A DNA stretch of 64,000 nucleotides. Source: Arenicola marina (lineage: Eukaryota; Annelida; Polychaeta; Arenicolidae). Below the pieces are notes generated by a model. It searched no databases, was not told where the DNA came from, and worked only from the letters and a program-made list of their open reading frames with translations. Position numbers and translations under genes: made by a program. Of this stretch, positions 14,074 through 60,648 are shown piece after piece (the stretch's first letter is position 1; every line of letters begins with the position of its first letter). Where the stretch lies: the NCBI GenBank assembly GCA_964019135.1, contig OZ025248.1, positions 41,161,670 through 41,225,669 of the forward strand, in the 5' to 3' direction.

Positions 14074-14081
14074 ACCTTTGA

Positions 14082-14912
14082 TTAGTATATCAGCAGTTGT
14101 ACTGTGTTCGGAGTCAGTTTACAGAGAAAATTTTCAATTAAAGTTCCCCTATATTTGGACAGTCTTGTTGGGAGAGTTATCAGGGGGAAAAAGCTTCGGG
14201 AAAGAACGGTGTCGAAGTACTCACTTAAAACTGGTTTTTCATTCAGACTGAGAAGATTTATATTATAATCGCCTGCAATGATAACCTCGCAAGGGTTTTT
14301 CTCAAGATGGTGAAGGGTAGAAGATAATTCTTTTGTAAACTGAATATAATTATCATTAATATCACGGGGAGGCCGATATAATATAATTTTTTTCTCTGTG
14401 GAGTGCCGCCCCGCGACTTCTATAAATTGCCCTTCCCATATATCAGATCGAACATGTGGGGAAATAGTTTTGTACTTAAGCTTGTTGTTTAAATATATAA
14501 TCAGTCCACCATGAGCACTACAATACTTCCCAGTAAAGATAAGTGTATAGTTCTCTAAGTTAAACAGTGATAGGTCAGAGTCGTCAGACAGCCAGCTCTC
14601 CTGTAAACATATTGCAGATAATTCAATACCTTTACTTTTTAAAACATCTGTTAACACTTTTAATTCGTCAAATTTTGATGATATGGAGGCGACATTTAAG
14701 CTCATAATAGAGAATTCACCCCGACCCTCACAGAGAGTCGATAAGAATTGGTCTTCTGTGTAATAGGGTGACAGTTGTATGTAATCCACCTCTGAATTGT
14801 TATATCTTACATTTCTATCATTCGACTTCAATGTATTGAGCAGAGAATTCTGCTCAACACCGCCAAATTTCCTCAAAAAATCCTCACTTCCAGTGATATG
14901 CACATCTAACAT
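14082..14912 (-). pseudogene. LINE apurinic-type endonuclease domain (276 codons, frameshifted end)
   Basis: An exonuclease/endonuclease/phosphatase fold is shown by SLNVASISSKFDEL (71-84, Asn at 73), QESWL (104-108, catalytic Glu), an HGGL block (134-137), LYRPP (178-182) and GDYN (214-217, catalytic Asp and Asn). The later TLIEN (257-261) usually has Asp where Glu stands. The frame stops at 276 and the SDH block lies in the next frame, so the domain is broken by a frameshift near 14.1 kb. Confidence 0.9.
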
Positions 14913-15018
14913 TTGAAAAGTACAAGTGTATATTTTTCCATACTACTTTGGTTCTACCATTTGTACTCAGGTCGATCTGAATCAAGCTGATCGTATTTAC
15001 AGCGCAGACTGGTGATAA

Positions 15019-35489: not shown

Positions 35490-36541
35490 TCGATGTCTAG
35501 TCGGGCCTCCTGTTTTACATTGCGGGCGGGGCTATCACGGTGTCTATATAGATGTCTAGTGAGGCCTCCTGTTTTACATTGCGGGCCGGGCTATCACGGT
35601 GTCTATATAGATGTCCAGTGAGGCCTCCAGTTTTACATTACGGGCGGGCTATCACGGTGTCTATATAGATGTCTAGTCCGGCCTCCTGTTTTTCATTGCA
35701 AGCGGGGCTATCACGGTGTCTATATCGATGTCTAGTGAGGCCTCCTGTTTTACATTACGGGCGGGGCTATCACGGTGTCTATATAGATGTCTAGTCGGGC
35801 CTCCTGTTTTACATTACGGGCGGGGCATTCCCGGTGTCTATATAGATGTCTAGTGAGGCCTCCTGTTTTACATTGCGGGCCGGGCTATCACGGTGTCTAT
35901 ATAGATGTCTAGTGAGGCCTCCAGTTTTACATTACGGGCGGGGCTATCACGGTGTCTATATATATGTCTAGTCCGGCCTCCTGTTTTACATTGCGGGCAG
36001 GGCTGTCACGGTGTCTACATCGCTGTTTAGTCGGGCCTCCTGTTTTACATTGCGGGCGGGGCTATCACGGTGTCTATATCGATGTCTAGTGAGGCCTCCT
36101 GTTTTACATTACGGGCGGGGCTATCACGGTGTCTATGTCGATGTCTAGTCGGGCCTCCTGTTTTATATTGCGGGCAGGGCTGTCACGGTGTCTATATAGA
36201 TGTCTAGTTGGGCCTCCTGTTTTACATTACGGGCGGGGCTATCACGGTGTCTATATATATGTCTAGTCCGGCCTCCTGTTTTACATTGCGGGCAGGGCTG
36301 TCACGGTGTCTACATCGCTGTCTAGTCGGGCCTCCTGTTTTACATTACGGGCGGGGCTATCACGGTGTCTATATCGATGTCTAGTGAGGCCTCCTGTTTT
36401 ACATTACGGGCGGGGCTATCACGGTGTCTATATCGCTGTCTAGTCGGGCCTCCTGTTTTACATTGCGGGTGGGGCAATCACGGTGTCTATATAGATGTCT
36501 AGTCCGGCCTCCTGTTTTACATTACGGGCGGGGCTATCACG

Positions 36542-39500
36542 GTGTCTATATCGATGTCTAGTCGGGTTTCCTGTTTTACATTACGGGCGGGGCTATCACG
36601 GTGTCTATATCGATGTCTAGTGAGGCCTCCTGTTTTACATTACGGGCTGGGCTATCACGGTGTCTATATAGATGTCTACTCGGGCCTCCTGTTTTACATT
36701 ACGGGCGGGGCTATCACTGTGTCTATATCGATGTCTAGTGAGGCCTCCTGTTTTACATTACGGGCGGGGCTATCACGGTGTCTATATCGATGTGTAGTCG
36801 GGCCTCCTGTTTTACATTACGGGCGGGGCTATCACGGTGTCTATATCGATGTCTAGTGAGGCCTCCTGTCTTACATTACGGGCGGGGCTATCAAGGTGTC
36901 TATATCGATGTCTAGTGAGGCCTCCTGTTTTACATTACGGGCGGGGCTATCACGGTGTCTATATCGATGTCTAGTGAGGCCTCCTGTTTTACATTACGGG
37001 CGGGGCTATCACGGTGTCTATATCGATGTCTAGTGAGGCCTCCTGTTTTACATTACGGGCGGGGCTATCACGGTGTCTATATCGATGTCTAGTGAGGCCT
37101 CCTGTTTTACATTACGGGCGGGGCTATCACGGTGTCTATATCGATGTCTAGTGAGGCCTCCTGTTTTACATTACGGGCGGGGCTATCACGGTGTCTATAT
37201 CGATGTCTAGTGAGGCCTCCTGTTTTACATTACGGGCGGGGATATCACGGTGACTATTTCGATGTCTAGTGAGGCCTCCTGTTTTACATGACGGGCGGGG
37301 CATTCCCGGTGTCTATATAGATGTCTAGTGAGGCCTCCAGTTTTACATTACGGGCGGGGCTATCACGGTGTCTATATATATGTCTAGTCCGGCCTCCTGT
37401 TTTACATTGCGGGCAGGGCTGTCACGGTGTCTACATCGCTGTTTAGTCGGGCCTCCTGTTTTACATTGCGGGCGGGGCTATCACGGTGTCTATATCGATG
37501 TCTAGTCAGGTTTCCTGTTTTACATTACGGGCGGGGCTATCACGGTGTCTATATAGATGTCTAGTCAGGTTTCCTGTTTTACATTACGGGCGGGGCTATC
37601 ACGGTGTCTATATCGATGTCTAGTGAGGCCTCCTGTTTTACATTACGGGCGGGGCTATCACGGTGTCTATATCGATGTCTAGTGAGGCCTCCTGTTTTAC
37701 ATTACGGGCGGGGATATCACGGTGACTATTTCGATGTCTAGTGAGGCCTCCTGTTTTACATGACGGGCGGGGCATTCCCGGTGTCTATATAGATGTCTAG
37801 TGAGGCCTCCTGTTTTACATTGCGGGCCGGGCTATCACGGTGTCTATATAGATGTCTAGTGAGGCCTCCAGTTTTACATTACGGGCGGGGCTATCACGGT
37901 GTCTATATATATGTCTAGTCCGGCCTCCTGTTTTACATTGCGGGCAGGGCTGTCACGGTGTCTACATCGCTGTTTAGTCGGGCCTCCTGTTTTACATTGC
38001 GGGCGGGGCTATCACGGTGTCTATATCGATGTCTAGTGAGGCCTCCTGTTTTACATTACGGTGGGGGCTATCACGGTGTCTATGTCGATGTCTAGTCGGG
38101 CCTCCTGTTTTATATTGCGGGCAGGGCTGTCACGGTGTCTATATAGATGTCTAGTTGGGCCTCCTGTTTTACATTACGGGCGGGGCTATCACGGTGTCTA
38201 TATATATGTCTAGTCCGGCCTCCTGTTTTACATTGCGGGCAGGGCTGTCACGGTGTCTACATCGCTGTCTAGTCGGGCCTCCTGTTTTACATTACGGGCG
38301 GGGCTATCACGGTGTCTATATCGATGTCTAGTGAGGCCTCCTGTTTTACATTACGGGCGGGGCTATCACGGTGTCTATATCGCTGTCTAGTCGGGCCTCC
38401 TGTTTTACATTGCGGGTGGGGCTGTCACGGTGTCTATATAGATGTCTAGTCCGGCCTCCTGTTTTACATTACGGGCGGGGCTATCACGGTGTCTATATCG
38501 ATGTCTAGTCGGGTTTCCTGTTTTACATTACGGGCGGGGCTATCACGGTGTCTATATCGATGTCTAGTGAGGCCTCCTGTTTTACATTACGGGCTGGGCT
38601 ATCACGGTGTCTATATAGATGTCTACTCGGGCCTCCTGTTTTACATTACGGGCGGGGCTATCACTGTGTCTATATCGATGTCTAGTGAGGCCTCCTGTTT
38701 TACATTACGGGCGGGGCTATCACGGTGTCTATATCGATGTGTAGTCGGGCCTCCTGTTTTACATTACGGGCGGGGCTATCACGGTGTCTATATCGATGTC
38801 TAGTGAGGCCTCCTGTCTTACATTACGGGCGGGGCTATCAAGGTGTCTATATCGATGTCTAGTGAGGCCTCCTGTTTTACATTACGGGCGGGGCTATCAC
38901 GGTGTCTATATCGATGTCTAGTGAGGCCTCCTGTTTTACATTACGGGCGGGGCTATCACGGTGTCTATATCGATGTCTAGTGAGGCCTCCTGTTTTACAT
39001 TACGGGCGGGGCTATCACGGTGTCTATATCGATGTCTAGTGAGGCCTCCTGTTTTACATTACGGGCGGGGCTATCACGGTGTCTATATCGATGTCTAGTG
39101 AGGCCTCCTGTTTTACATTACGGGCGGGGCTATCACGGTGTCTATATCGATGTCTAGTGAGGCCTCCTGTTTTACATTACGGGCGGGGATATCACGGTGA
39201 CTATTTCGATGTCTAGTGAGGCCTCCTGTTTTACATGACGGGCGGGGCATTCCCGGTGTCTATATAGATGTCTAGTGAGGCCTCCAGTTTTACATTACGG
39301 GCGGGGCTATCACGGTGTCTATATATATGTCTAGTCCGGCCTCCTGTTTTACATTGCGGGCAGGGCTGTCACGGTGTCTACATCGCTGTTTAGTCGGGCC
39401 TCCTGTTTTACATTGCGGGCGGGGCTATCACGGTGTCTATATCGATGTCTAGTCAGGTTTCCTGTTTTACATTACGGGCGGGGCTATCACGGTGTCTATA

Positions 39501-42500
39501 TAGATGTCTAGTCAGGTTTCCTGTTTTACATTACGGGCGGGGCTATCACGGTGTCTATATCGATGTCTAGTGAGGCCTCCTGTTTTACATTACGGGCGGG
39601 GCTATCACGGTGTCTATATCGATGTCTAGTGAGGCCTCCTGTTTTACATTACGGGCGGGGATATCACGGTGACTATTTCGATGTCTAGTGAGGCCTCCTG
39701 TTTTACATGACGGGCGGGGCATTCCCGGTGTCTATATAGATGTCTAGTGAGGCCTCCTGTTTTACATTGCGGGCCGGGCTATCACGGTGTCTATATAGAT
39801 GTCTAGTGAGGCCTCCAGTTTTACATTACGGGCGGGGCTATCACGGTGTCTATATATATGTCTAGTCCGGCCTCCTGTTTTACATTGCGGGCAGGGCTGT
39901 CACGGTGTCTACATCGCTGTTTAGTCGGGCCTCCTGTTTTACATTGCGGGCGGGGCTATCACGGTGTCTATATCGATGTCTAGTGAGGCCTCCTGTTTTA
40001 CATTACGGGCGGGGCTATCACGGTGTCTATGTCGATGTCTAGTCGGGCCTCCTGTTTTATATTGCGGGCAGGGCTGTCACGGTGTCTATATAGATGTCTA
40101 GTTGGGCCTCCTGTTTTACATTACGGGCGGGGCTATCACGGTGTCTATATATATGTCTAGTCCGGCCTCCTGTTTTACATTGCGGGCAGGGCTGTCACGG
40201 TGTCTACATCGCTGTCTAGTCGGGCCTCCTGTTTTACATTACGGGCGGGGCTATCACGGTGTCTATATCGATGTCTAGTGAGGCCTCCTGTTTTACATTA
40301 CGGGCGGGGCTATCACGGTGTCTATATCGCTGTCTAGTCGGGCCTCCTGTTTTACATTGCGGGTGGGGCAATCACGGTGTCTATATAGATGTCTAGTCCG
40401 GCCTCCTGTTTTACATTACGGGCGGGGCTATCACGGTGTCTATATCGATGTCTAGTCGGGTTTCCTGTTTTACATTACGGGCGGGGCTATCACGGTGTCT
40501 ATATCGATGTCTAGTGAGGCCTCCTGTTTTACATTACGGGCTGGGCTATCACGGTGTCTATATAGATGTCTACTCGGGCCTCCTGTTTTACATTACGGGC
40601 GGGGCTATCACTGTGTCTATATCGATGTCTAGTGAGGCCTCCTGTTTTACATTACGGGCGGGGCTATCACGGTGTCTATATCGATGTGTAGTCGGGCCTC
40701 CTGTTTTACATTACGGGCGGGGCTATCACGGTGTCTATATCGATGTCTAGTGAGGCCTCCTGTCTTACATTACGGGCGGGGCTATCAAGGTGTCTATATC
40801 GATGTCTAGTGAGGCCTCCTGTTTTACATTACGGGCGGGGCTATCACGGTGTCTATATCGATGTCTAGTGAGGCCTCCTGTTTTACATTACGGGCGGGGC
40901 TATCACGGTGTCTATATCGATGTCTAGTGAGGCCTCCTGTTTTACATTACGGGCGGGGCTATCACGGTGTCTATATCGATGTCTAGTGAGGCCTCCTGTT
41001 TTACATTACGGGCGGGGCTATCACGGTGTCTATATCGATGTCTAGTGAGGCCTCCTGTTTTACATTACGGGCGGGGCTATCACGGTGTCTATATCGATGT
41101 CTAGTGAGGCCTCCTGTTTTACATTACGGGCGGGGATATCACGGTGACTATTTCGATGTCTAGTGAGGCCTCCTGTTTTACATGACGGGCGGGGCATTCC
41201 CGGTGTCTATATAGATGTCTAGTGAGGCCTCCTGTTTTACATTGCGGGCCGGGCTATCACGGTGTCTATATAGATGTCTAGTGAGGCCTCCAGTTTTACA
41301 TTACGGGCGGGGCTATCACGGTGTCTATATATATGTCTAGTCCGGCCTCCTGTTTTACATTGCGGGCAGGGCTGTCACGGTGTCTACATCGCTGTTTAGT
41401 CGGGCCTCCTGTTTTACATTGCGGGCGGGGCTATCACGGTGTCTATATCGATGTCTAGTCAGGTTTCCTGTTTTACATTACGGGCGGGGCTATCACGGTG
41501 TCTATATAGATGTCTAGTCAGGTTTCCTGTTTTACATTACGGGCGGGGCTATCAAGGTGTCTTTATCGATGTCTAGTGAGGCCTCCTGTTTTACATTACG
41601 GGCGGGGCTATCACGGTGTCTATATCGATGTCTAGTGAGGCCTCCTGTTTTACATTACGGGCGGGGCTATCACGGTGTCTATATAGATGTCTAGTCGGGC
41701 CTCCTGTTTTACATTACGGGCGGGGCATTCCCGGTGTCTATATAGATGTCTAGTGAGGCCTCCTGTTTTACATTGCGGGCCGGGCTATCACGGTGTCTAT
41801 ATAGATGTCTAGTGAGGCCTCCAGTTTTACATTACGGGCGGGGCTATCACGGTGTCTATATATATGTCTAGTCCGGCCTCCTGTTTTACATTGCGGGCAG
41901 GGCTGTCACGGTGTCTACATCGCTGTTTAGTCGGGCCTCCTGTTTTACATTGCGGGCGGGGCTATCACGGTGTCTATATCGATGTCTAGTGAGGCCTCCT
42001 GTTTTACATTACGGGCGGGGCTATCACGGTGTCTATGTCGATGTCTAGTCGGGCCTCCTGTTTTATATTGCGGGCAGGGCTGTCACGGTGTCTATATAGA
42101 TGTCTAGTTGGGCCTCCTGTTTTACATTACGGGCGGGGCTATCACGGTGTCTATATATATGTCTAGTCCGGCCTCCTGTTTTACATTGCGGGCAGGGCTG
42201 TCACGGTGTCTACATCGCTGTCTAGTCGGGCCTCCTGTTTTACATTACGGGCGGGGCTATCACGGTGTCTATATCGATGTCTAGTGAGGCCTCCTGTTTT
42301 ACATTACGGGCGGGGCTATCACGGTGTCTATATCGCTGTCTAGTCGGGCCTCCTGTTTTACATTGCGGGTGGGGCAATCACGGTGTCTATATAGATGTCT
42401 AGTCCGGCCTCCTGTTTTACATTACGGGCGGGGCTATCACGGTGTCTATATCGATGTCTAGTCGGGTTTCCTGTTTTACATTACGGGCGGGGCTATCACG

Positions 42501-45500
42501 GTGTCTATATCGATGTCTAGTGAGGCCTCCTGTTTTACATTACGGGCTGGGCTATCACGGTGTCTATATAGATGTCTACTCGGGCCTCCTGTTTTACATT
42601 ACGGGCGGGGCTATCACTGTGTCTATATCGATGTCTAGTGAGGCCTCCTGTTTTACATTACGGGCGGGGCTATCACGGTGTCTATATCGATGTGTAGTCG
42701 GGCCTCCTGTTTTACATTACGGGCGGGGCTATCACGGTGTCTATATCGATGTCTAGTGAGGCCTCCTGTCTTACATTACGGGCGGGGCTATCAAGGTGTC
42801 TATATCGATGTCTAGTGAGGCCTCCTGTTTTACATTACGGGCGGGGCTATCACGGTGTCTATATCGATGTCTAGTGAGGCCTCCTGTTTTACATTACGGG
42901 CGGGGCTATCACGGTGTCTATATCGATGTCTAGTGAGGCCTCCTGTTTTACATTACGGGCGGGGCTATCACGGTGTCTATATCGATGTCTAGTGAGGCCT
43001 CCTGTTTTACATTACGGGCGGGGCTATCACGGTGTCTATATCGATGTCTAGTGAGGCCTCCTGTTTTACATTACGGGCGGGGCTATCACGGTGTCTATAT
43101 CGATGTCTAGTGAGGCCTCCTGTTTTACATTACGGGCGGGGATATCACGGTGACTATTTCGATGTCTAGTGAGGCCTCCTGTTTTACATGACGGGCGGGG
43201 CATTCCCGGTGTCTATATAGATGTCTAGTGAGGCCTCCAGTTTTACATTACGGGCGGGGCTATCACGGTGTCTATATATATGTCTAGTCCGGCCTCCTGT
43301 TTTACATTGCGGGCAGGGCTGTCACGGTGTCTACATCGCTGTTTAGTCGGGCCTCCTGTTTTACATTGCGGGCGGGGCTATCACGGTGTCTATATCGATG
43401 TCTAGTCAGGTTTCCTGTTTTACATTACGGGCGGGGCTATCACGGTGTCTATATAGATGTCTAGTCAGGTTTCCTGTTTTACATTACGGGCGGGGCTATC
43501 ACGGTGTCTATATCGATGTCTAGTGAGGCCTCCTGTTTTACATTACGGGCGGGGCTATCACGGTGTCTATATCGATGTCTAGTGAGGCCTCCTGTTTTAC
43601 ATTACGGGCGGGGATATCACGGTGACTATTTCGATGTCTAGTGAGGCCTCCTGTTTTACATGACGGGCGGGGCATTCCCGGTGTCTATATAGATGTCTAG
43701 TGAGGCCTCCTGTTTTACATTGCGGGCCGGGCTATCACGGTGTCTATATAGATGTCTAGTGAGGCCTCCAGTTTTACATTACGGGCGGGGCTATCACGGT
43801 GTCTATATATATGTCTAGTCCGGCCTCCTGTTTTACATTGCGGGCAGGGCTGTCACGGTGTCTACATCGCTGTTTAGTCGGGCCTCCTGTTTTACATTGC
43901 GGGCGGGGCTATCACGGTGTCTATATCGATGTCTAGTGAGGCCTCCTGTTTTACATTACGGTGGGGGCTATCACGGTGTCTATGTCGATGTCTAGTCGGG
44001 CCTCCTGTTTTATATTGCGGGCAGGGCTGTCACGGTGTCTATATAGATGTCTAGTTGGGCCTCCTGTTTTACATTACGGGCGGGGCTATCACGGTGTCTA
44101 TATATATGTCTAGTCCGGCCTCCTGTTTTACATTGCGGGCAGGGCTGTCACGGTGTCTACATCGCTGTCTAGTCGGGCCTCCTGTTTTACATTACGGGCG
44201 GGGCTATCACGGTGTCTATATCGATGTCTAGTGAGGCCTCCTGTTTTACATTACGGGCGGGGCTATCACGGTGTCTATATCGCTGTCTAGTCGGGCCTCC
44301 TGTTTTACATTGCGGGTGGGGCAATCACGGTGTCTATATAGATGTCTAGTCCGGCCTCCTGTTTTACATTACGGGCGGGGCTATCACGGTGTCTATATCG
44401 ATGTCTAGTCGGGTTTCCTGTTTTACATTACGGGCGGGGCTATCACGGTGTCTATATCGATGTCTAGTGAGGCCTCCTGTTTTACATTACGGGCTGGGCT
44501 ATCACGGTGTCTATATAGATGTCTACTCGGGCCTCCTGTTTTACATTACGGGCGGGGCTATCACTGTGTCTATATCGATGTCTAGTGAGGCCTCCTGTTT
44601 TACATTACGGGCGGGGCTATCACGGTGTCTATATCGATGTGTAGTCGGGCCTCCTGTTTTACATTACGGGCGGGGCTATCACGGTGTCTATATCGATGTC
44701 TAGTGAGGCCTCCTGTCTTACATTACGGGCGGGGCTATCAAGGTGTCTATATCGATGTCTAGTGAGGCCTCCTGTTTTACATTACGGGCGGGGCTATCAC
44801 GGTGTCTATATCGATGTCTAGTGAGGCCTCCTGTTTTACATTACGGGCGGGGCTATCACGGTGTCTATATCGATGTCTAGTGAGGCCTCCTGTTTTACAT
44901 TACGGGCGGGGCTATCACGGTGTCTATATCGATGTCTAGTGAGGCCTCCTGTTTTACATTACGGGCGGGGCTATCACGGTGTCTATATCGATGTCTAGTG
45001 AGGCCTCCTGTTTTACATTACGGGCGGGGCTATCACGGTGTCTATATCGATGTCTAGTGAGGCCTCCTGTTTTACATTACGGGCGGGGATATCACGGTGA
45101 CTATTTCGATGTCTAGTGAGGCCTCCTGTTTTACATGACGGGCGGGGCATTCCCGGTGTCTATATAGATGTCTAGTGAGGCCTCCAGTTTTACATTACGG
45201 GCGGGGCTATCACGGTGTCTATATATATGTCTAGTCCGGCCTCCTGTTTTACATTGCGGGCAGGGCTGTCACGGTGTCTACATCGCTGTTTAGTCGGGCC
45301 TCCTGTTTTACATTGCGGGCGGGGCTATCACGGTGTCTATATCGATGTCTAGTCAGGTTTCCTGTTTTACATTACGGGCGGGGCTATCACGGTGTCTATA
45401 TAGATGTCTAGTCAGGTTTCCTGTTTTACATTACGGGCGGGGCTATCACGGTGTCTATATCGATGTCTAGTGAGGCCTCCTGTTTTACATTACGGGCGGG

Positions 45501-48500
45501 GCTATCACGGTGTCTATATCGATGTCTAGTGAGGCCTCCTGTTTTACATTACGGGCGGGGATATCACGGTGACTATTTCGATGTCTAGTGAGGCCTCCTG
45601 TTTTACATGACGGGCGGGGCATTCCCGGTGTCTATATAGATGTCTAGTGAGGCCTCCTGTTTTACATTGCGGGCCGGGCTATCACGGTGTCTATATAGAT
45701 GTCTAGTGAGGCCTCCAGTTTTACATTACGGGCGGGGCTATCACGGTGTCTATATATATGTCTAGTCCGGCCTCCTGTTTTACATTGCGGGCAGGGCTGT
45801 CACGGTGTCTACATCGCTGTTTAGTCGGGCCTCCTGTTTTACATTGCGGGCGGGGCTATCACGGTGTCTATATCGATGTCTAGTGAGGCCTCCTGTTTTA
45901 CATTACGGGCGGGGCTATCACGGTGTCTATGTCGATGTCTAGTCGGGCCTCCTGTTTTATATTGCGGGCAGGGCTGTCACGGTGTCTATATAGATGTCTA
46001 GTTGGGCCTCCTGTTTTACATTACGGGCGGGGCTATCACGGTGTCTATATATATGTCTAGTCCGGCCTCCTGTTTTACATTGCGGGCAGGGCTGTCACGG
46101 TGTCTACATCGCTGTCTAGTCGGGCCTCCTGTTTTACATTACGGGCGGGGCTATCACGGTGTCTATATCGATGTCTAGTGAGGCCTCCTGTTTTACATTA
46201 CGGGCGGGGCTATCACGGTGTCTATATCGCTGTCTAGTCGGGCCTCCTGTTTTACATTGCGGGTGGGGCAATCACGGTGTCTATATAGATGTCTAGTCCG
46301 GCCTCCTGTTTTACATTACGGGCGGGGCTATCACGGTGTCTATATCGATGTCTAGTCGGGTTTCCTGTTTTACATTACGGGCGGGGCTATCACGGTGTCT
46401 ATATCGATGTCTAGTGAGGCCTCCTGTTTTACATTACGGGCTGGGCTATCACGGTGTCTATATAGATGTCTACTCGGGCCTCCTGTTTTACATTACGGGC
46501 GGGGCTATCACTGTGTCTATATCGATGTCTAGTGAGGCCTCCTGTTTTACATTACGGGCGGGGCTATCACGGTGTCTATATCGATGTGTAGTCGGGCCTC
46601 CTGTTTTACATTACGGGCGGGGCTATCACGGTGTCTATATCGATGTCTAGTGAGGCCTCCTGTCTTACATTACGGGCGGGGCTATCAAGGTGTCTATATC
46701 GATGTCTAGTGAGGCCTCCTGTTTTACATTACGGGCGGGGCTATCACGGTGTCTATATCGATGTCTAGTGAGGCCTCCTGTTTTACATTACGGGCGGGGC
46801 TATCACGGTGTCTATATCGATGTCTAGTGAGGCCTCCTGTTTTACATTACGGGCGGGGCTATCACGGTGTCTATATCGATGTCTAGTGAGGCCTCCTGTT
46901 TTACATTACGGGCGGGGCTATCACGGTGTCTATATCGATGTCTAGTGAGGCCTCCTGTTTTACATTACGGGCGGGGCTATCACGGTGTCTATATCGATGT
47001 CTAGTGAGGCCTCCTGTTTTACATTACGGGCGGGGATATCACGGTGACTATTTCGATGTCTAGTGAGGCCTCCTGTTTTACATGACGGGCGGGGCATTCC
47101 CGGTGTCTATATAGATGTCTAGTGAGGCCTCCTGTTTTACATTGCGGGCCGGGCTATCACGGTGTCTATATAGATGTCTAGTGAGGCCTCCAGTTTTACA
47201 TTACGGGCGGGGCTATCACGGTGTCTATATATATGTCTAGTCCGGCCTCCTGTTTTACATTGCGGGCAGGGCTGTCACGGTGTCTACATCGCTGTTTAGT
47301 CGGGCCTCCTGTTTTACATTGCGGGCGGGGCTATCACGGTGTCTATATCGATGTCTAGTCAGGTTTCCTGTTTTACATTACGGGCGGGGCTATCACGGTG
47401 TCTATATAGATGTCTAGTCAGGTTTCCTGTTTTACATTACGGGCGGGGCTATCAAGGTGTCTTTATCGATGTCTAGTGAGGCCTCCTGTTTTACATTACG
47501 GGCGGGGCTATCACGGTGTCTATATCGATGTCTAGTGAGGCCTCCTGTTTTACATTACGGGCGGGGCTATCACGGTGTCTATATCGATGTCTAGTGAGGC
47601 CTCCTGTTTTACATTACGGGCGGGGATATCACGGTGACTATTTCGATGTCTAGTGAGGCCTCCTGTTTTACATGACGGGCGGGGCATTCCCGGTGTCTAT
47701 ATAGATGTCTAGTGAGGCCTCCTGTTTTACATTGCGGGCCGGGCTATCACGGTGTCTATATAGATGTCTAGTGAGGCCTCCAGTTTTACATTACGGGCGG
47801 GGCTATCACGGTGTCTATATATATGTCTAGTCCGGCCTCCTGTTTTACATTGCGGGCAGGGCTGTCACGGTGTCTACATCGCTGTTTAGTCGGGCCTCCT
47901 GTTTTACATAGCGGGCGGGGCTATCACGGTGTCTATATCGATGTCTAGTGAGGCCTCCTGTTTTACATTACGGGCGGGGCTATCACGGTGTCTATGTCGA
48001 TGTCTAGTCGGGCCTCCTGTTTTATATTGCGGGCAGGGCTGTCACGGTGTCTATATAGATGTCTAGTTGGGCCTCCTGTTTTACATTACGGGCGGGGCTA
48101 TCACGGTGTCTATATATATGTCTAGTCCGGCCTCCTGTTTTACATTGCGGGCAGGGCTGTCACGGTGTCTACATCGCTGTCTAGTCGGGCCTCCTGTTTT
48201 ACATTACGGGCGGGGCTATCACGGTGTCTATATCGATGTCTAGTGAGGCCTCCTGTTTTACATTACGGGCGGGGCTATCACGGTGTCTATATCGCTGTCT
48301 AGTCGGGCCTCCTGTTTTACATTGCGGGTGGGGCAATCACGGTGTCTATATAGATGTCTAGTCCGGCCTCCTGTTTTACATTACGGGCGGGGCTATCACG
48401 GTGTCTATATCGATGTCTAGTCGGGTTTCCTGTTTTACATTACGGGCGGGGCTATCACGGTGTCTATATCGATGTCTAGTGAGGCCTCCTGTTTTACATT

Positions 48501-50465
48501 ACGGGCTGGGCTATCACGGTGTCTATATAGATGTCTACTCGGGCCTCCTGTTTTACATTACGGGCGGGGCTATCACTGTGTCTATATCGATGTCTAGTGA
48601 GGCCTCCTGTTTTACATTACGGGCGGGGCTATCACGGTGTCTATATCGATGTGTAGTCGGGCCTCCTGTTTTACATTACGGGCGGGGCTATCACGGTGTC
48701 TATATCGATGTCTAGTGAGGCCTCCTGTCTTACATTACGGGCGGGGCTATCAAGGTGTCTATATCGATGTCTAGTGAGGCCTCCTGTTTTACATTACGGG
48801 CGGGGCTATCACGGTGTCTATATCGATGTCTAGTGAGGCCTCCTGTTTTACATTACGGGCGGGGCTATCACGGTGTCTATATCGATGTCTAGTGAGGCCT
48901 CCTGTTTTACATTACGGGCGGGGCTATCACGGTGTCTATATCGATGTCTAGTGAGGCCTCCTGTTTTACATTACGGGCGGGGCTATCACGGTGTCTATAT
49001 CGATGTCTAGTGAGGCCTCCTGTTTTACATTACGGGCGGGGCTATCACGGTGTCTATATCGATGTCTAGTGAGGCCTCCTGTTTTACATTACGGGCGGGG
49101 ATATCACGGTGACTATTTCGATGTCTAGTGAGGCCTCCTGTTTTACATGACGGGCGGGGCATTCCCGGTGTCTATATAGATGTCTAGTGAGGCCTCCTGT
49201 TTTACATTGCGGGCCGGGCTATCACGGTGTCTATATAGATGTCTAGTGAGGCCTCCAGTTTTACATTACGGGCGGGGCTATCACGGTGTCTATATATATG
49301 TCTAGTCCGGCCTCCTGTTTTACATTGCGGGCAGGGCTGTCACGGTGTCTACATCGCTGTTTAGTCGGGCCTCCTGTTTTACATTGCGGGCGGGGCTATC
49401 ACGGTGTCTATATCGATGTCTAGTCAGGTTTCCTGTTTTACATTACGGGCGGGGCTATCACGGTGTCTATATAGATGTCTAGTCAGGTTTCCTGTTTTAC
49501 ATTACGGGCGGGGCTATCAAGGTGTCTTTATCGATGTCTAGTGAGGCCTCCTGTTTTACATTACGGGCGGGGCTATCACGGTGTCTATATCGATGTCTAG
49601 TGAGGCCTCCTGTTTTACATTACGGGCGGGGCTATCACGGTGTCTATATCGATGTCTAGTGAGGCCTCCTGTTTTACATTACGGGCGGGGATATCACGGT
49701 GACTATTTCGATGTCTAGTGAGGCCTCCTGTTTTACATGACGGGCGGGGCATTCCCGGTGTCTATATAGATGTCTAGTGAGGCCTCCTGTTTTACATTGC
49801 GGGCCGGGCTATCACGGTGTCTATATAGATGTCTAGTGAGGCCTCCAGTTTTACATTACGGGCGGGGCTATCACGGTGTCTATATATATGTCTAGTCCGG
49901 CCTCCTGTTTTACATTGCGGGCAGGGCTGTCACGGTGTCTACATCGCTGTTTAGTCGGGCCTCCTGTTTTACATTGCGGGCGGGGCTATCACGGTGTCTA
50001 TATCGATGTCTAGTGAGGCCTCCTGTTTTACATTACGGGCGGGGCTATCACGGTGTCTATGTCGATGTCTAGTCGGGCCTCCTGTTTTATATTGCGGGCA
50101 GGGCTGTCACGGTGTCTATATAGATGTCTAGTCGGGCCTCCTGTTTTACATTACTGGCGGGGCTATCACGGTGTCTATATATATGTCTAGTCCGGCCTCC
50201 TGTTTTACATTGCGGGCAGGGCTGTCACGGTGTCTACATCGCTGTCTAGTCGGGCCTCCTGTTTTACATTACGGGCGGGGCTATCACGGTGTCTATATCG
50301 ATGTCTAGTCGGGCCTCCTGTTTTATATTGCGGGCAGGGCTGTCACGGTGTCTACATCGCTGTCTAGTCGGGCCTCCTGTTTTACATTGCGGGTGGGGCA
50401 ATCACGGTGTCTATATAGATGTCTAGTCCGGCCTCCTGTTTTACATTACGGGCCGGGCTATCACG
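36542..50465. repeat. Higher-order-repeat core: seven consecutive units
   Basis: Seven units with lengths that are whole multiples of 59 bp. A 315-bp marker at the start of each unit translates identically in the first seven marker copies, so the units are nearly identical. Length variants arise by gain of whole monomers, for example an extra tgcgggccgggc monomer near 41.2 kb, which is what unequal crossover in register would give. Confidence 0.93.
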
Positions 50466-50799
50466 GTGTCTATATAGATGTCTAGTCAGGTTTCCTGTTT
50501 TACATTACGGGCGGGGCTATCACGGTGTCTATATCGATATCTAGTGAGGCCTCCTGTTTTACATTACGGGCTGGGCTATCACGGTGTCTATATAGATGTC
50601 TACTCGGGCCTCCTGTTTTACATTACGGGCGGGGCTATCACGGTGTCTATATCGATGTCTAGTGAGGCCTCCTGTTTTACATTACGGGCGGGGCTATCAC
50701 GGTGTCTATATCGATGTGTAGTCGGGCCTCCTGTTTTACATTACGGGCGGGGCTATCACGGTGTCTATATCGATGTCTAGTGAGGCCTCCTGTTTTACA

Positions 50800-52836
50800 T
50801 TACGGGCGGGGCTATCAAGGTGTCTATATCGATGTCTAGTGAGGCCTCCTGTTTTACATTACGGGCGGGGCTATCACGGTGTCTATATCGATGTCTAGTG
50901 AGGCCTCCTGTTTTACATTACGGGCGGGGCTATCACGGTGTCTATATCGATGTCTAGTGAGGCCTCCTGTTTTACATTACGGGCGGGGCTATCACGGTGT
51001 CTATATCGATGTCTAGGGAGGCCTCCTGTTTTACATTACGGGCGGGGCTATCACGGTGTCTATATCGATGTCTAGTGAGGCCTCCTGTTTTACATTACGA
51101 GCGGGGCTATCAAGGTGTCTTTATCGATGTCTAGTGAGGCCTCCTGTTTTACATTACGGGCGGGGCTATCAAGGTGTCTTTATCGATGTCTAGTGAGGCC
51201 TCCTGTTTTACATTACGGGCGGGGCTATCACGGTGTCTATATCGATGTCTAGTGAGGCCTCCTGTTTTACATTACGGGCGGGGATATCACGGTGACTATT
51301 TCGATGTCTAGTGAGGCCTCCTGTTTTACATTACGGGCGGGGCTATCACGGTGTCTATATCGATGTCTAGTGAGGCCTCCTGTTTTACATTACGGGCGGG
51401 GCTATCACGGTGTCTATATCGATGTCTAGTGAGGCCTCCTGTTTTACATTACGGGCGGGGCTATCACGGTGTCTATATCGATGTCTAGTGAGGCCTCCTG
51501 TTTTACATTACGGGCGGGGCTATCAAGGTGTCTATATCGATGTCTAGTGAGGCCTCCTGTTTTACATTACGGGCGGGGCTATCAAGGTGTCTATATCGAT
51601 GTCTAGTGAGGCCTCCTGTTTTACATTACGGGCGGGGCTATCACGGTGTCTATATCGATGTCTAGTGAGGCCTCCTGTTTTACATTACGGGCGGGGCTAT
51701 CAAGGTGTCTATATCGATGTCTAGTGAGGCCTCCTGTTTTACATTACGGGCGGAGCTATCACGGTGTCTATATCGATGTCTAGTGAGGCCTCCTGTTTTA
51801 CATTACGGGCGGGGCTATCACGGTGTCTATATTGATGTCTAGTGAGGTCTCCTGTTTTACATTACGGGCGGGGATATCAAGGTGTCTATATCGATGTCTA
51901 GTGAGGGCTCCTGTTTTACATTACGGGCGGGGCTATCACGGTGACTATTTCGATGTCTAGTGAGGCCTCCTGTTTTACATTACGGGCGGGGCTATCACGG
52001 TGTCTATATCGATGTCTAGTGAGGCCTCCTGTTTTACATTACGGGCGGGGCTATCAAGGTGTCTATATCGATGTCTAGTGAGGCCTCCTGTTTTACATTA
52101 CGGGCGGGGCTATCACGGTGTCTATATCGATGTCTAGTGAGGCCTCCTGTTTTACATTACGGGCGGGGCTATCCCGGTGTCTATATCGATGTCTAGTGAG
52201 GCCTCCTGTTTTACATTACGGGCGGGGCTATCACGGTGTCTATATCGATGTCTAGTGAGGCCTCCTGTTTTACATTACGGGCGGGGCTATCAAGGTGTCT
52301 ATATCGATGTCTAGTGAGGCCTCCTGTTTTACATTACGGGCGGGGCTATCACGGTGTCTATATCGATGTCTAGTGAGGCCTCCTGTTTTACATTACGGGC
52401 GGGGATATCACGGTGACTATTTCGATGTCTAGTGAGGCCTCCTGTTTTACATTACGGGGCGGGGCTATCACGGTGTCTATATCGATGTCTAGTGAGGCCT
52501 CCTGTTTTACATTACGGGCGGGGCTATCACGGTGTCTATATCGATGTCTAGTGAGGTCTCCTGTTTTACATTACGGGCGGGGATATCAAGGTGTCTATAT
52601 CGATGTCTAGTGAGGCCTCCTGTTTTACATTACGGGCGGGGCTATCACGGTGTCTATATCGATGTCTAGTGAGGCCTCCTGTTTTACATTACGGGCGGGG
52701 CTATCACGGTGTCTATATCGATGTCTAGTGAGGTCTCCTGTTTTACATTACGGGCGGGGATATCACGGTGACTATTTCGATGTCTAGTGAGGCCTCCTGT
52801 TTTACATTACGGGGCGGGGCTATCACGGTGTCTATA
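50800..52836. repeat. Monomeric right flank of the 59-bp satellite
   Basis: Here most monomers are of one type (gtgaggcctcctgttttacattacgggcggggc in overlapping reading) with private changes, including two 60-bp monomers with an added G (near 52456 and 52812). No 33-mer order is seen. The array stops abruptly inside a monomer at 52836. Confidence 0.85.
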
Positions 52837-53062
52837 GAAGGACCAATAATCTGAATTATTTGCACACTTCTCTGCTTATAGCTGTAAACATATTTTATAT
52901 TTTATAAGCATATTCACATATATTTTACTTCAATGTAACATGCACTAAAACAATGCCTACACATAGAAATGATGCTCGTCACTTGTTCACGTCTACTAAG
53001 GCAATTTACAATTAGCATTTGTTTTATTTTTGACCATAGCTTACTATATATTGTATATTATA
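52837..53062 (-). other. 3' flank/UTR of the DUF229-like gene
   Basis: AT-rich 226-bp spacer between the gene's stop codon and the satellite, containing its poly(A) signal. Confidence 0.6.
53023..53028 (-). terminator. Poly(A) signal AATAAA of the DUF229-like gene
   Basis: AATAAA on the minus strand begins 35 bp past the stop codon at 53063, giving a short 3' UTR. The satellite begins only 186 bp further on. Confidence 0.6.
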
Positions 53063-56000
53063 TTAGAAAAGGCGCATCTTGCTCGAATCGTGTCCTTCAT
53101 ACGGGTACACAGAGAAGTCGGTTTTGAATCCCAGTTGAGTGGCTATCCGACTATAGAACTGTTTCCACGAGACGGCCAGAAATGCCCCCTGGTGAGGTTG
53201 CAACGTCCTCTCGACCGGGTAATACTCGCTAGATGTCGCCATGTGTTGCGTGAACAGATACAGACGGACCGTGTAAGTTCTGTCCGGACAAATATTGAAC
53301 GCTTGGAATGTATAGGTATGCGAGGCGTAGTTCCGTATGCAGAGATACAGGCACCGATCATGGAGGTCCCGGACCATCCCACTGACCCCGAAGTGAGGCC
53401 GCGTAATGTACTGCAGTATTTCAAGTTTGGATTGTTTGACAAGGAAATTACACAGAGTCTGAATTTTCCTCTCCAGCACGCTATGATCCAGTGTTTCCAT
53501 AGAAAGATATTTCCACGTGAGCATTGACACATTGCCTCGGAAATTGTCCAGCAGTTGTACGTCAACTCTTATGACGTCATCGCCATGTTTGGCTTTGGCG
53601 TATGGCGTGAGGTGAAAAGCCATATCCAGCGTCAATCCGGTGACCAGACCAGACTGCGACAGCGATAATTGTACATCAGTAAATGCCAAACCTGACGCCA
53701 TGCGACAAATGGCCACGGAGTTAACCGGAAGTGCTGTATTACAGCCCCCTTTCCCGCAGTTAGCGCCTGGCTCCAATTGCCTCATGAACTGAGCATGCGC
53801 GTAAGTCGCCATGGCAACCTGTACGGTGTCATTGGGGAAGGCGGTCGGTTGCCGGGAGCAGAGGCAGAGGTTGGGAGTCTCCAAGGTCAGGTCTCGGCAG
53901 GGCCTCGCTTCCGGCAAGCTGTCGAACAGAGAGAAAGCTTTCGATATGGCGTGCGTCTCGCCATCACTGCCATTGTCGCTAATGGGTGTGGCGGCGGGGG
54001 GCTGAGCGGAGCCTTTGTCCGGCGTGGGAAGGTCTTGATTGGCCGGCGGGTGGGCTCCGTAAATTGCCGGCCCACCAGACGAGGGCCAGTTTAAGAGATC
54101 AAGGAGTGTACCGTGCAGGTCGCCGACCGCGACCGGCAGAAACTGGTTGCGGTACATCGTCTGATGCCTCGGGGGGTCGGAGTCGGGGTCGGGGTCGGGA
54201 TCGGGGTCATTGGGGTGGGGATGGGAGCCGGGGTGTTGGTGGGGGCGGTGGGAGGAGGGGTGCTTCTTTAACTTTATCTCTCCGGGGAGGATCATCATCA
54301 GCAGTGGGTTGAACTGCTCGGCGTAGAGTAGCCGGGCGGAGGAGTAGTGGCGCCCCCTGCTGGCCTGTCCCCGCCGCCGCCGCCGCCGCTGGGGGGGACG
54401 TTGACCCCCGTCCTCCCCACCTATATCGGCCCTCCCCCCTCCGCCCCCCGTATCGCTGACGAGGACAGTGACAGTCTCCGGACGTCTGCTGGTGGCATTG
54501 ATGTGTCTGGAGAGCAGGATGTCGACGTCAGCGGACACCGAGAGTCCGGCTTCGAGAAGCGGCTCCAGAATACTCAACACGAAGCGGGGTTCTTCAGACC
54601 CAACACTGCTCGCGACACGCAGGGTGAGATCGGTGCACCATAGCGTCTGACATGGCATGCCGCTGGGGGGCGCCACATCGACGTATCCATGGAGACGTTT
54701 ATCTTTACCCGCCTGATCGATAGCTTCCTTGCTATTACCATCGGACGCGTGACCACTCCAATTAGGCTGGGGAAAAACCCGAGTCCCCTTGAGTTCCGGG
54801 TTTGACCGCTGGGTGTCGCTGGTGACATTACGGCGGCGGATCTGAGGTATGACCTTTCGACGCCCTTGCGGAAACTCCTGCGTCGTGGCGTGACAAGCAT
54901 GGCAAAGGTGGCCATAGAGTGGGCACGGACAGAGGAGGACTTCCGGCCGCTCCGGGCTAATCCAGCCGGCGTAATTGGGGTGCCGGTCGTGGCATGCGTC
55001 GCCCAACAAGGTCACGTGATAGCCCCGCCGCTGCAGTTCTCTGTAGAGAGGCGAGCCACTCAGGTCACCCTCGCCACCGAATATGGCCGCCAGGTTGGCC
55101 GGGAGACGACCGCTGAGGGCCTGGACGTAGCGGTAGTCCAGGCGGAGTCTGGCGGGGAGGGCCTGGACCAGGCCAGCGGTCAGAGGCAGGTTCCTGTAGA
55201 AAGCCCCACGGGAAATACCGCGCAAATAGATGAGATTAACGCTGAGTGTCGCGCTGGGGTCAGATGACGCGCCCACGTTTTCGTTTTGACTCTCCCCTTT
55301 TCTACTTCCGGTTTGTGGCATTTTTATTTTCGCCGCACGTGTCACTGTTTGATTTTGATTCAATTGACTGGACCGTTCTTTACACACAGCGTTCTTTACA
55401 CGCTTGTTCTGACCGCTATGTTGATGGGGTAATTCGTCCCTGGCTGTGGTACGCTCCTGGTGACCCGCTGCCCTCACCCCTGAACTCTCCAACACAGTCG
55501 CCGCCATTTTGTTTCTGCTTGGCGCGTGTCGTCGCTTCCTCTCCTTTACATCGGGCGTCCTTGTCACGGCCACGTGGTCCTTCTGATCGCTCTGATGGGC
55601 GATATTAAGGAGAACAAGCAGGTCCCGCGAGGTAGCCGCGAAGTCTGTCCCCGGCGTAATTGCTCCCGCGGTATCCCCCACACAGACAGCTCCCCACGTC
55701 TCCCTCTCGCCACACCCAAGGCGCTGGCAGCTCGGGAAAACCTGGCCAAAAGAGCCATTGACCTGCAGGCGGGGCCCACTGGGGAGTGAGATGTTTGCCA
55801 ATTGTCCCACCCATCCACCCTCGGCGCCACGACTCGGACAATCGTAGCAGTAACAATAAAAGCGCCCTTCAGTGGCAGAGTTGAGGTTTTGCGCCAGACA
55901 CCTTTGAAGACCGCGCTCGGACCACTCAAAATCCGGGCACTTGAGGGTTCGCGTCCGCGTCGCCATCTTGAACAGGCACTCAGAACGCCGAGGTGAGTTT

Positions 56001-56371
56001 AACACTCGCGCGTTTTCTCGTTCCTCTCGATGTTCTCTGTTCAGCGCTTTGCATTCGTCGTGCGTGGCCACTATGGCTGGACAAGTGGTCACCGAGAAGT
56101 GGGGCGAGCTACTGGGGTCTTCTGCGATCCCCGAGGGGTAACCTGGATGGCACACTGCAATGTCCGGCCACACACCGCCTTGGGTCTCTCTGGTCACACG
56201 CCGGGCGCCGTCATCTCGCGAGAGGCCCACGAGAAAACTCGTGACGGTCCCCACACAATCCGGCCGCCACGCCGTCAGTGACGTCACCAAGACTGCCGCG
56301 CACACACACACCGCCACAGGAACAGTTTTCACTCGCCGTCCGAAGCGACCGTCCGACTTGAAGCCAGCCAT
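53063..56371 (-). CDS. DUF229-like (alkaline phosphatase/sulfatase superfamily) type II membrane protein, probable pseudoenzyme
   Basis: An intronless frame of 1102 codons from the ATG at 56371 (an in-frame ATG at 56464 would add 31 residues, but a TATA box lies between). Basic residues precede a signal anchor at about 16-35, so the bulk is lumenal or extracellular. A Cys-rich stem with Asn-glycosylation sites follows, then a basic linker, then the DUF229-like domain from about 379: NLIYLRGISRGAFYR (379-393), VLVSDTGG (636-643), VAVGDLHGTLLDLL (747-760) and FSLFDSLPEARPC...CLC (813-838). In the family the first block has a metal-binding Asp where Arg384 stands, and the SDHG block has His where Thr641 stands. 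The usual SHDD-type block is not evident. An insertion at about 644-735 carries six Arg, a His-rich run and (DP)n. The rest is free of frameshifts, so it is likely expressed but not catalytic. The tandem copy at 59.2-59.6 kb is truncated. Confidence 0.8.
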   Translation of the reverse strand: MAGFKSDGRFGRRVKTVPVAVCVCAAVLVTSLTAWRPDCVGTVTSFLVGLSRDDGARRVTRETQGGVWPDIAVCHPGYPSGIAEDPSSSPHFSVTTCPAIVATHDECKALNREHREERENARVLNSPRRSECLFKMATRTRTLKCPDFEWSERGLQRCLAQNLNSATEGRFYCYCYDCPSRGAEGGWVGQLANISLPSGPRLQVNGSFGQVFPSCQRLGCGERETWGAVCVGDTAGAITPGTDFAATSRDLLVLLNIAHQSDQKDHVAVTRTPDVKERKRRHAPSRNKMAATVLESSGVRAAGHQERTTARDELPHQHSGQNKRVKNAVCKERSSQLNQNQTVTRAAKIKMPQTGSRKGESQNENVGASSDPSATLSVNLIYLRGISRGAFYRNLPLTAGLVQALPARLRLDYRYVQALSGRLPANLAAIFGGEGDLSGSPLYRELQRRGYHVTLLGDACHDRHPNYAGWISPERPEVLLCPCPLYGHLCHACHATTQEFPQGRRKVIPQIRRRNVTSDTQRSNPELKGTRVFPQPNWSGHASDGNSKEAIDQAGKDKRLHGYVDVAPPSGMPCQTLWCTDLTLRVASSVGSEEPRFVLSILEPLLEAGLSVSADVDILLSRHINATSRRPETVTVLVSDTGGGGGRADIGGEDGGQRPPQRRRRRRGQASRGRHYSSARLLYAEQFNPLLMMILPGEIKLKKHPSSHRPHQHPGSHPHPNDPDPDPDPDSDPPRHQTMYRNQFLPVAVGDLHGTLLDLLNWPSSGGPAIYGAHPPANQDLPTPDKGSAQPPAATPISDNGSDGETHAISKAFSLFDSLPEARPCRDLTLETPNLCLCSRQPTAFPNDTVQVAMATYAHAQFMRQLEPGANCGKGGCNTALPVNSVAICRMASGLAFTDVQLSLSQSGLVTGLTLDMAFHLTPYAKAKHGDDVIRVDVQLLDNFRGNVSMLTWKYLSMETLDHSVLERKIQTLCNFLVKQSKLEILQYITRPHFGVSGMVRDLHDRCLYLCIRNYASHTYTFQAFNICPDRTYTVRLYLFTQHMATSSEYYPVERTLQPHQGAFLAVSWKQFYSRIATQLGFKTDFSVYPYEGHDSSKMRLF

Positions 56372-56624
56372 AATTGACCCAAAACTGATATCAATAGTCA
56401 TACTTTTTATATACGTGGTAATCCTAAGAACACTAAGGGTCCTAATCCTAATCCTAAGGGTCAAATAGAACTGGTCGCGTCAGTATGACGGTTCCCATGG
56501 TGATAAAATAGACATTCAAATCTGCAGCGAGGGCAACTCGGTCAGCGCTAATGGCTTACCTAATGCATACAACATTAGTTGTGTTTTCACCGCCTGGGAA
56601 TATTATCCAGGGATCTACTGCTTC
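56091..56624. repeat. Segmental duplication, block A (original)
   Basis: The first about 93 codons of the DUF229-like gene, its TATA region and about 250 bp upstream recur at 59237-59768 (offset 3145) with few differences. The left breakpoint is at caccgagaag and the right one at ggatctactgc. Confidence 0.93.
56404..56413 (-). promoter_or_regulatory. TATA box of the DUF229-like gene
   Basis: TATATAAAAA on the minus strand lies 33-42 bp upstream of the ATG at 56371, implying a very short leader. It sits inside the longer frame that starts at 56464 and is the reason I prefer the internal start. The duplicated copy has the same box at 59549-59558. Confidence 0.4.
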
Positions 56625-58215: not shown

Positions 58216-59236
58216 AAACACAAAAACATACAGAGCCCACACTTTCACAGGTCTGGAGACGATTATTTGCTTATGCTTGTGAAAACAAAACTGATTAACC
58301 TAAGTTGAGATATTTATAGAGAGTATCATGTATGTGAATCGCCCATAAGCTTACCGGACTTTTGTACACGAATATATCTTTTCTATTTTATACTCATTAA
58401 TTAGATGTTGGGATATAAGTTTTTTAACCTATAAGAAAATAATGACTTGCATCACTGTATCTGTTCCTGTAAAACGTTGATCAGAGCGGGCTAGAGGAAG
58501 GAGTGGGTTCCAAAGGGATACTTTTTTTATTCTATTATATATGATTATAAGGAAGCAGATGTTTTATCTGCTCAGTCGTTGACCATTTATGGGTTTTCTG
58601 TGGTGAGAGTGGTGGCTCTAATGGGATACTCCCCACCAAGTCTTGCAATGTTGAAAGGTTTATTGTACTTCCGTTGCTGCCCGTGGTTTCACGGCCATGT
58701 AAACATGTCCTGAGCTTCAGAGCCTGGCGGTCTCACTGGACAGTAGACCAGACAGGCTCTACATACGCCAAGACAAATGGGAATGTACCTCAATAAAACA
58801 GCAGGTTCCCAAAGAGAATACCGATAGAGACCCCAAGGTGAGGTCATTTCTCCGTCGGTTCGTGCGCCGTCGGCAGACTGAGGAGTATTTCGGCCTTTAG
58901 CATTATCCCGCCGCAAATCACCATGTAGTGCATATGGCGTAAATAAATATAAATTGGAATATTCTTTTTAAAAATATATATGTATTTGTAAGTGGAAAGG
59001 TGATACGCCAAAGGTAATGGCTATAATTCGTCGTATAAAATAATATTTCGAGCTAGAGAGCAGAGTGGCAGAAACGCCGGAAAGAGCGAGGAAGAGTTTT
59101 AAAGCCAAGTTGGACCCAATATATGATGTAATCGCTGATGTGACGTTGGTAGGTTTGCATATTTGTGTACAGATATTGTCAATGTGTTATATGCCGCTTT
59201 TCGAAAAATAAAAGCATTACAAAAGCATTACCCTCA
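58216..59236. repeat. Segmental duplication, block B (first copy)
   Basis: About 1 kb of mostly unique DNA, repeated at 59766-60648 with few substitutions. The second copy lacks about 125 bp (near 58290-58415). It contains a 75-codon minus frame (58689-58916) kept open in both copies, with no recognised domain. Confidence 0.92.
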
Positions 59237-59768: not shown

Positions 59769-60648
59769 AAAAACATACACAGCCCACACTTTCACAGGTC
59801 TGGAGACGATTATTTACTTATGCTTGTGAAAACAAAACATTAGTTTTTTAACCTATAATAAATAATGACTTGCATCACTGTATCTGTTCCTGTAAAACGT
59901 TGATCAGAGCGGGCTGGAGGAAGGAGTGGGTTCCAAAGGGATACTTTTTTTATTCTATTATATATGATTATAAGGAAGCAGATGTTTTATCTGCTCAGTC
60001 GTTGACCATTTATGGGTTTTCTGTGGTGAGAGTGGTGGCTCTAATGGGATACTCCCCACCAAGTCTTGCAATATTGAAAGGTTTATTGTACTTCTGTTGC
60101 TGCCCGTGGTTTCACGGCCATGTAAACATGTCCTGAGCTTCAGAGCCTGACGGTCTCACTGGACAGTACACCAGACAGGCTCTACATACGCCAAGACAAA
60201 TGGGGATGTACCTCAATAAAACAGCAGGTTCCCAAAGAGAATACCGATAGAGACCCCAAGGTGAGGTTATTTCTCCGTCGGTTCGTGCGCCATCGGCAGA
60301 CTGAGGAGTATTTCGGCCTTTAGCATTATCCCGCCGCAAATCACCATGTAGTGCATATGGCGTAAATAAATATAAATTGGAATATTCTTTTTAAAAATAT
60401 ATATGTATTTGTAAGTGGAAAGGTGATACGCCAAAGGTAATGGCTATAATTCGTCGTATAAAATAATATTTCGAGCTAGAGAGCAGAGTGGCAGAAACAC
60501 CGGAAAGAGCGAGGAAGAGTTTTAAAGCCAAGTGGGACCCAATATATGATGTAATCGCTGATGTGACGTTGGTAGGTTTGCATATTTGTGTACAGATATT
60601 GTCAATGTGTTATATGCCGCTTTTCGAAAAACAAAAGCATTACAAAAA
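59766..60648. repeat. Segmental duplication, block B (second copy)
   Basis: Copy of 58216-59226 with the 125-bp deletion. It ends at gcattacaaaa, where the two copies diverge into block A copy 2 (first) and unique DNA leading to the 22-bp array (second). Confidence 0.92.

What the first reader, a model, noticed from the sequence alone, without database searches (positions are those of the whole stretch)
35490..52836. 59-bp satellite organised as a 33-35-monomer higher-order repeat with exact monomer register
Marker starts step by exactly 33, 33, 34, 33, 33, 35 and 35 monomers over 13.9 kb, with no off-register indel between markers. Units look nearly identical to each other while monomers inside a unit differ. 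This is the pattern of alpha-satellite-type higher-order arrays, but with an unusually short monomer and a long unit (1.95-2.07 kb), sitting on a chromosome arm beside a gene. It implies recent amplification by in-register unequal exchange. A centromeric or other structural role is possible but only inferred.
Basis: partly seen in the sequence, partly recalled or inferred. Interest (0 to 1): 0.8.

Follow-up and report, generated by a model that had tools for sequence, protein, structure and literature searches.

The report
Private minisatellite with nested repeats
A 17-kb run of a 59-base repeat, arranged in near-identical blocks of 33-35 copies, is real, but it was found only at this spot in an animal genome rich in such private repeats, so it looks like ordinary neutral repeat turnover and not a centromere.

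Summary
294 tandem 59-bp monomers fill 35490-52836. Units start at 35843, 37790, 39737, 41743, 43690, 45637, 47702 and 49767: 33, 33, 34, 33, 33, 35, 35 monomers over 13,924 bp without indel. Units differ by 0-13 nt in about 1,947; monomers inside a unit differ by about 8.4%. There is also a second level: units 1-3 (100 monomers, 5.9 kb) recur as units 4-6 with 5 mismatches and one 59-nt gap.

The centromere-type reading is not supported. The monomer is private to this locus: 109 of 109 exact 44-mer hits and 268 of 268 30-mer hits (up to 3 mismatches) in the 867-Mb assembly are accounted for by this array. The genome, probably annelid by mitochondrial gene order, is 39% minisatellite in 24 sampled stretches; 7 of 15 other arrays of 2 kb or more have a long-range index of at least 0.5 (focal 0.83). 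The likeliest mechanism is neutral in-register exchange of multi-monomer blocks. A simulation of that comes close to the pattern; blocks of one or two monomers do not. The unusual thing is the genome-wide background, not this array.

The parts
35490..52836 (+). 59-bp minisatellite array, 294 monomers
35490..35842 (+). left edge: 6 monomers (one of 58 bp), the last two (A, W) as at the end of unit 3
35843..37789 (+). unit 1, 33 monomers
37790..39736 (+). unit 2, 33 monomers (X variant)
39737..41742 (+). unit 3, 34 monomers (ends in W)
41743..43689 (+). unit 4, 33 monomers, identical to unit 1
43690..45636 (+). unit 5, 33 monomers (X variant, pairs with unit 2)
45637..47701 (+). unit 6, 35 monomers
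47702..49766 (+). unit 7, 35 monomers, 1 nt from unit 6
35843..41742 (+). second-level unit, copy 1 (units 1-3, 100 monomers, 5,900 bp)
41743..47701 (+). second-level unit, copy 2 (units 4-6, 5,959 bp; 5 mismatches and one 59-nt gap from copy 1)
49767..51182 (+). diverged partial unit, 24 monomers, 25 of 1,416 nt different from unit 7
51183..52836 (+). 28 monomers close to consensus, without the unit pattern (two are 60 bp)
53063..56479 (-). neighbouring 1,138-aa open frame with a weak DUF229 match; its stop lies 226 bp from the array, AATAAA at 53023-53028 on the - strand. A neighbour, not part of the array

Best explanation
This is a non-coding minisatellite private to one locus. Its order is most likely a by-product of neutral turnover. 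A short 59-bp array grew and its monomers diverged to about 8%. Repeated unequal exchange (sister-chromatid or homologous crossing-over, or gene conversion) in 59-bp register then duplicated and deleted blocks. A 25-monomer and a 10-monomer segment became a 35-mer. Single-monomer losses (V+A fused to U; loss of G) gave the 33-mer. A three-unit block of 100 monomers was duplicated, and the edges, which exchange less, stayed diverged. Shown: the anatomy, a monomer that reads as a fusion of two neighbours, the privacy of the monomer, and that block exchange comes close to the pattern in simulation. Inferred: the order of events, the recombination pathway and the absence of function.
For: Exact register and nested units. 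U equals the left part of V joined to the right part of A, which follow each other in the 35-mer; 74 of 276 informative site pairs fail the four-gamete test, as expected from exchange inside monomers. The right edge carries a diverged unit and monomers without the unit pattern. Genome hits of the monomer equal those in the array: 109 and 109, 268 and 268. Two other arrays tested with exact patterns are confined to one place each: 7 of 7 hits within 19.1 kb of C1, 4 of 4 within 38 kb of C4. 7 of 15 other arrays of at least 2 kb have H of at least 0.5. Simulated neutral block exchange (12 runs a setting) gives mean H 0.68-0.77 with 43-45 types at mean blocks of 20-40 monomers and 0.5 mutations per event, against 0.82 and 46 labels observed; mean blocks of 1-2 give 0.01-0.21. 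Longest stop-free run in the array 117 codons; no Rfam match at gathering score in the window; a dimer folds no better than shuffles as single-stranded DNA (z +0.84 and +1.14).
Against: No reads, no second individual and no relative were available, so rate, polymorphism and mechanism are untested. Some four-gamete failures may be recurrent mutation. Ten monomer types can be written as a fusion of two adjacent types, several of them trivially (the near-consensus ones), so one fusion alone is modest evidence; W could not be so written. The simulation uses parameters I chose; no tested setting matched both H and type number exactly, and I did not measure whether simulated unit lengths are as regular as 33-35. 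Four of the 15 comparison arrays show no long-range order at all.
Confidence: 0.82

Rival explanations
1. Part of the higher-order pattern is an assembly product: two haplotypes of the array were joined end to end, so units 4-6 are an allele of units 1-3.
For: Units 1-3 and 4-6 differ by only 5 mismatches and one 59-nt gap over 5.9 kb; units 1 and 4 are identical. The read data cannot be seen.
Against: The 33-mer period is also present inside each half (units 1, 2, 3) and in units 6-8, so the first-level units would remain. The window holds no N, and 17 kb is a length that long accurate reads can span (general knowledge). Other arrays show long-range order too, though the same doubt could apply to them.
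Confidence: 0.12
2. The array is (part of) a centromere or another chromosome-structural satellite.
For: Higher-order organisation resembles alpha satellite; the window lies near the middle of the 77-Mb contig.
Against: No hit of the monomer core (30-mer, up to 3 mismatches) anywhere else in the assembly; the array is only 17 kb; the flanking 20 kb on each side holds other, unrelated minisatellites at 30-56%, like the sampled genome; a retrotransposon and a 1,138-aa frame lie in the window.
Confidence: 0.03
3. The array has a local regulatory or transcriptional role for the neighbouring open frame (53063-56479, minus strand).
For: It begins 226 bp past the stop codon and about 190 bp past a possible poly(A) signal of that frame.
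Against: 39% of sampled sequence is minisatellite, so adjacency is expected by chance; no RNA family and no unusual single-strand DNA fold. Neither excludes a role.
Confidence: 0.05

Closest known systems
Human and primate alpha-satellite higher-order repeats
   Same: Multi-monomer units more alike than the monomers within them. The review PMC8122249 (passages seen) gives monomers about 70% alike and units 97-100% alike. Diverged edges of such arrays: recalled.
   Different: 171-bp (start of the abstract of PMC4585704, listing) versus 59-bp monomer; many chromosomes versus one 17-kb locus; monomers here are about 92% alike; no centromeric evidence.
Classical minisatellites / VNTRs with variant-repeat maps
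   Same: Monomer in the 11-60 bp range (definition seen in passages of PMC12692304), single locus, mosaic variants (variant-repeat maps recalled).
   Different: 17 kb is far longer than the few hundred bp that the same review calls usual, and the variants are ordered in nested units.
Smith-type neutral tandem arrays under unequal crossing-over (theory named in passages of PMC8122249; details recalled)
   Same: Expected outcome, including homogenised core and diverged edges.
   Different: Nothing in conflict was found; rates could not be tested.

Membership tests
Higher-order repeat array (general) | Units of several monomers more alike to each other than the monomers inside | tested here: met
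   0-13 nt per about 1,947 versus about 8.4%
Higher-order repeat array (general) | Fixed monomer register through the units | tested here: met
   236 monomers in exactly 13,924 bp
Alpha-satellite-type centromeric satellite | Monomer family present on several or all chromosomes | tested here: not met
   109 of 109 and 268 of 268 hits accounted for by one locus
Alpha-satellite-type centromeric satellite | Binds CENP-A / forms the kinetochore | not testable with these tools
   no ChIP or CUT&RUN data
Minisatellite locus | Monomer of about 11-60 bp (PMC12692304, passages) | tested here: met
   59 bp
Minisatellite locus | Single locus, mainly in euchromatin | tested here: inconclusive
   single locus shown; chromatin state unknown
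Minisatellite locus | Copy-number polymorphism between individuals | not testable with these tools
   one assembly only

The most novel reading that the evidence does not exclude
In this animal, in-register exchange between minisatellite monomers is unusually active across the whole genome, so that some two-fifths of the chromosomes consist of thousands of unrelated, locus-private arrays, a large share of which have independently evolved higher-order units. The genome would then be a natural replicate experiment on how higher-order repeats arise without centromeric selection. (The two-fifths and the thousands are extrapolated from 24 stretches, 224 kb.)
Probability: 0.35. Interest if true: 0.6.

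Novelty: new member of a known kind. Interest (0 to 1): 0.33.

Why it matters
It suggests that a hallmark of centromeric satellites, nested near-identical units in strict register, also appears at a single locus with no sign of centromeric function, so it should not be read as a sign of a centromere by itself. If the genome-wide background holds up, many independent arrays in one genome would let the neutral theory of higher-order repeats be tested with replication.

Tried and rejected
A protein-coding repeat was rejected: 59 is not a multiple of 3 and the longest stop-free run in the array is 117 codons. A structured RNA or a folding motif found no support: no Rfam match at gathering score, and a dimer folds no better than shuffles as DNA. 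CpG decay as a methylation mark was inconclusive: among distinct monomers, 4 kinds of transition at the 8 CpG positions versus 13 at the 51 others. The four tRNA hits in the window all fall inside the 23-bp minisatellite and were set aside as likely chance. A first genome search with 301 bases of the array could not be scored, having too many candidates, so short patterns were used. The eukaryotic SSU rRNA search got no usable answer. Seven paper searches showed no title or abstract start describing such an array in an annelid or a genome two-fifths private minisatellites; except for the listings were capped (15 of 33, 25 of 57, 15 of 164, 15 of 45, 12 of 61, 12 of 2,432), so this is no proof of absence. 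Of papers, only passages of PMC8122249 and PMC12692304 were read.

Full report
What is there. Tandem Repeats Finder reports one array at 35490-52836 with period 59 and 294 copies. Cut in register it has 294 monomers and 44 distinct sequences, the commonest present 77 times (one search printed 46 labels because it mis-cut the last 60-bp monomer). The three off-length monomers lie outside the span of the seven units. Pairwise unit differences range from 0 (units 1 and 4) to 13 nt (units 2 and 3) in about 1,947 aligned bases, not counting gaps of one or two whole monomers, while monomers within a unit differ by 8.2-8.6% on average. Shuffling the order of the first 250 labels 1,000 times never gave a label match at any lag from 10 to 119 above 0.185; the observed best is 0.69 at lag 100.

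Nested order. The best label lag is 100, because units 1-3 recur as units 4-6 with 5 mismatches and one 59-nt gap; by nucleotides the best lag over the whole array is 1,947 (0.933), then 5,900 (0.928). The 35-mer itself reads as a 25-monomer and a 10-monomer part, each beginning with the same four monomers (G, C, B, E) and ending with the same two (D, F) (my reading of the letters). The 33-mer differs from the 35-mer by two single-monomer losses, if the 35-mer is older. One of them would have left monomer U, equal to the left part of V and the right part of A. Of 276 pairs of informative sites among 42 distinct 59-bp monomers, 74 fail the four-gamete test (four of 295 cut pieces were dropped before this count: the 58-bp and one 60-bp monomer, the mis-cut last monomer and its 1-nt remainder). 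The right side runs out into a diverged partial unit (25 of 1,416 nt from unit 7; units 6 and 7 differ by 1 over the same span) and then 28 monomers close to consensus.

Where it is. The window is 41,161,670-41,225,669 of contig C1, 77,012,514 bp, in an assembly of 867,369,267 bp in 762 contigs. The mitochondrial contig C762 (15,942 bp; cox1 by Pfam) reads K, nad3, S, nad2, cox1, N, cox2, D, atp8, Y, G, cox3, Q, nad6, cob over the two stretches read. S, N, D, Y, G and Q were called by ARAGORN with invertebrate mitochondrial settings (with bacterial settings it found none on the first stretch). K and the protein genes other than cox1 were recognised by eye. That is the annelid ground order as I recall it, so the animal is probably an annelid; no call names it.

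Privacy. An exact 44-mer of the monomer has 109 hits in the assembly and 109 in the window, all in the array. A 30-mer with up to 3 mismatches has 268 and 268. No reverse-strand hit was found. The printed lists stop at about 100 places, so confinement rests on the equal counts. More diverged relatives of the monomer, and copies missing from the assembly, are not excluded.

Base rate. I read 24 stretches at round coordinates on nine contigs (C1-C8 and C10; 224,000 bases, an arbitrary and not a random sample): 88,123 bases, 39.3%, are tandem repeats of period 10 or more. Single stretches range from 2% to 100%. The four flanking 10-kb stretches have 30-56% and the window 50%. A long-range index H (the share of an array covered by exact words of six periods that recur at least five periods away) was computed for the 17 arrays of at least 2 kb: the focal array has 0.83, rank 4 of 17. 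Of the 15 outside the window (12 in the 24 stretches, 3 in the flanks), 7 have H of at least 0.5 and 10 at least 0.25; shuffled controls (20 each) reach at most 0.14. One of the seven, L031, is a very homogeneous array (97% matches), so its index is weaker evidence for units. Four of the 15 have H of 0.00. Arrays cut by stretch ends are undercounted. Among 69 consensus entries of arrays of at least 500 bp, none was shared between different places, apart from one array crossing the border of two adjoining stretches and neighbouring arrays inside L016 and inside L031. Exact patterns from two other arrays hit one place each: 7 of 7 over 19.1 kb, 4 of 4 over 38 kb, which suggests that some arrays are longer than the focal one; I read only part of each.

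Mechanism. In a simple simulation with one block duplication or deletion per step and occasional new variants (12 runs a setting), mean H passes 0.5 only when the mean block is 5 monomers or more. With means of 20-40 and 0.5 mutations per event it gives 0.68-0.77 and 43-45 types, near the observed 0.82 and 46 labels; with 0.1 mutations per event H is 0.87-0.90 but only 12-15 types remain; with means of 1-2 it gives 0.01-0.21. This favours recombination-sized blocks over single-monomer slippage. It does not tell crossing-over from gene conversion. An age is not given: 5 mismatches in 5.9 kb suggests recent, but the rate is unknown and conversion resets the clock.

Function. No evidence of any was found. 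The array is non-coding, the window has no Rfam match at gathering score and a dimer has no special fold. The nearest long open frame (53063-56479, minus strand, DUF229 at E 6e-4, below Pfam's cut-off: 19.1 against 25 bits) ends 226 bp away. In a genome so rich in minisatellites such a neighbour is expected.

Verdict. Its analogy holds for the likely mode of evolution, and is not supported for the role. The array is one ordinary example in a remarkable background.

Noticed in passing
genome-wide sample, L005-L020 and L030-L037: 39% of 224 kb sampled is minisatellite, each array apparently with its own monomer; five of the 24 stretches (L008, L015, L017, L031, L034) are array over 99-100% of their length.
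   Followed up: partly
L008 (C1, 20.00 Mb): A 52-bp array filling the stretch, with repeated blocks 2,560 and about 4,443 bp apart and H 0.97, higher than the focal array; exact hits of its pattern span 19.1 kb.
   Followed up: partly
window 5455-11454: A 6-kb, 23-bp minisatellite with weaker long-range blocks (542 and 683 bp apart; H 0.34); ARAGORN calls four tRNAs inside it, probably false.
   Followed up: partly
window 12361-14942: Two minus-strand frames with reverse transcriptase and endonuclease domains, by my reading a non-LTR retrotransposon.
   Followed up: no
window about 58451-59200 and 59874-60623: A direct duplication of about 0.75 kb at an offset of 1,423 bp, 48-50 of 50 bases matching in every 50-base step.
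   Followed up: partly
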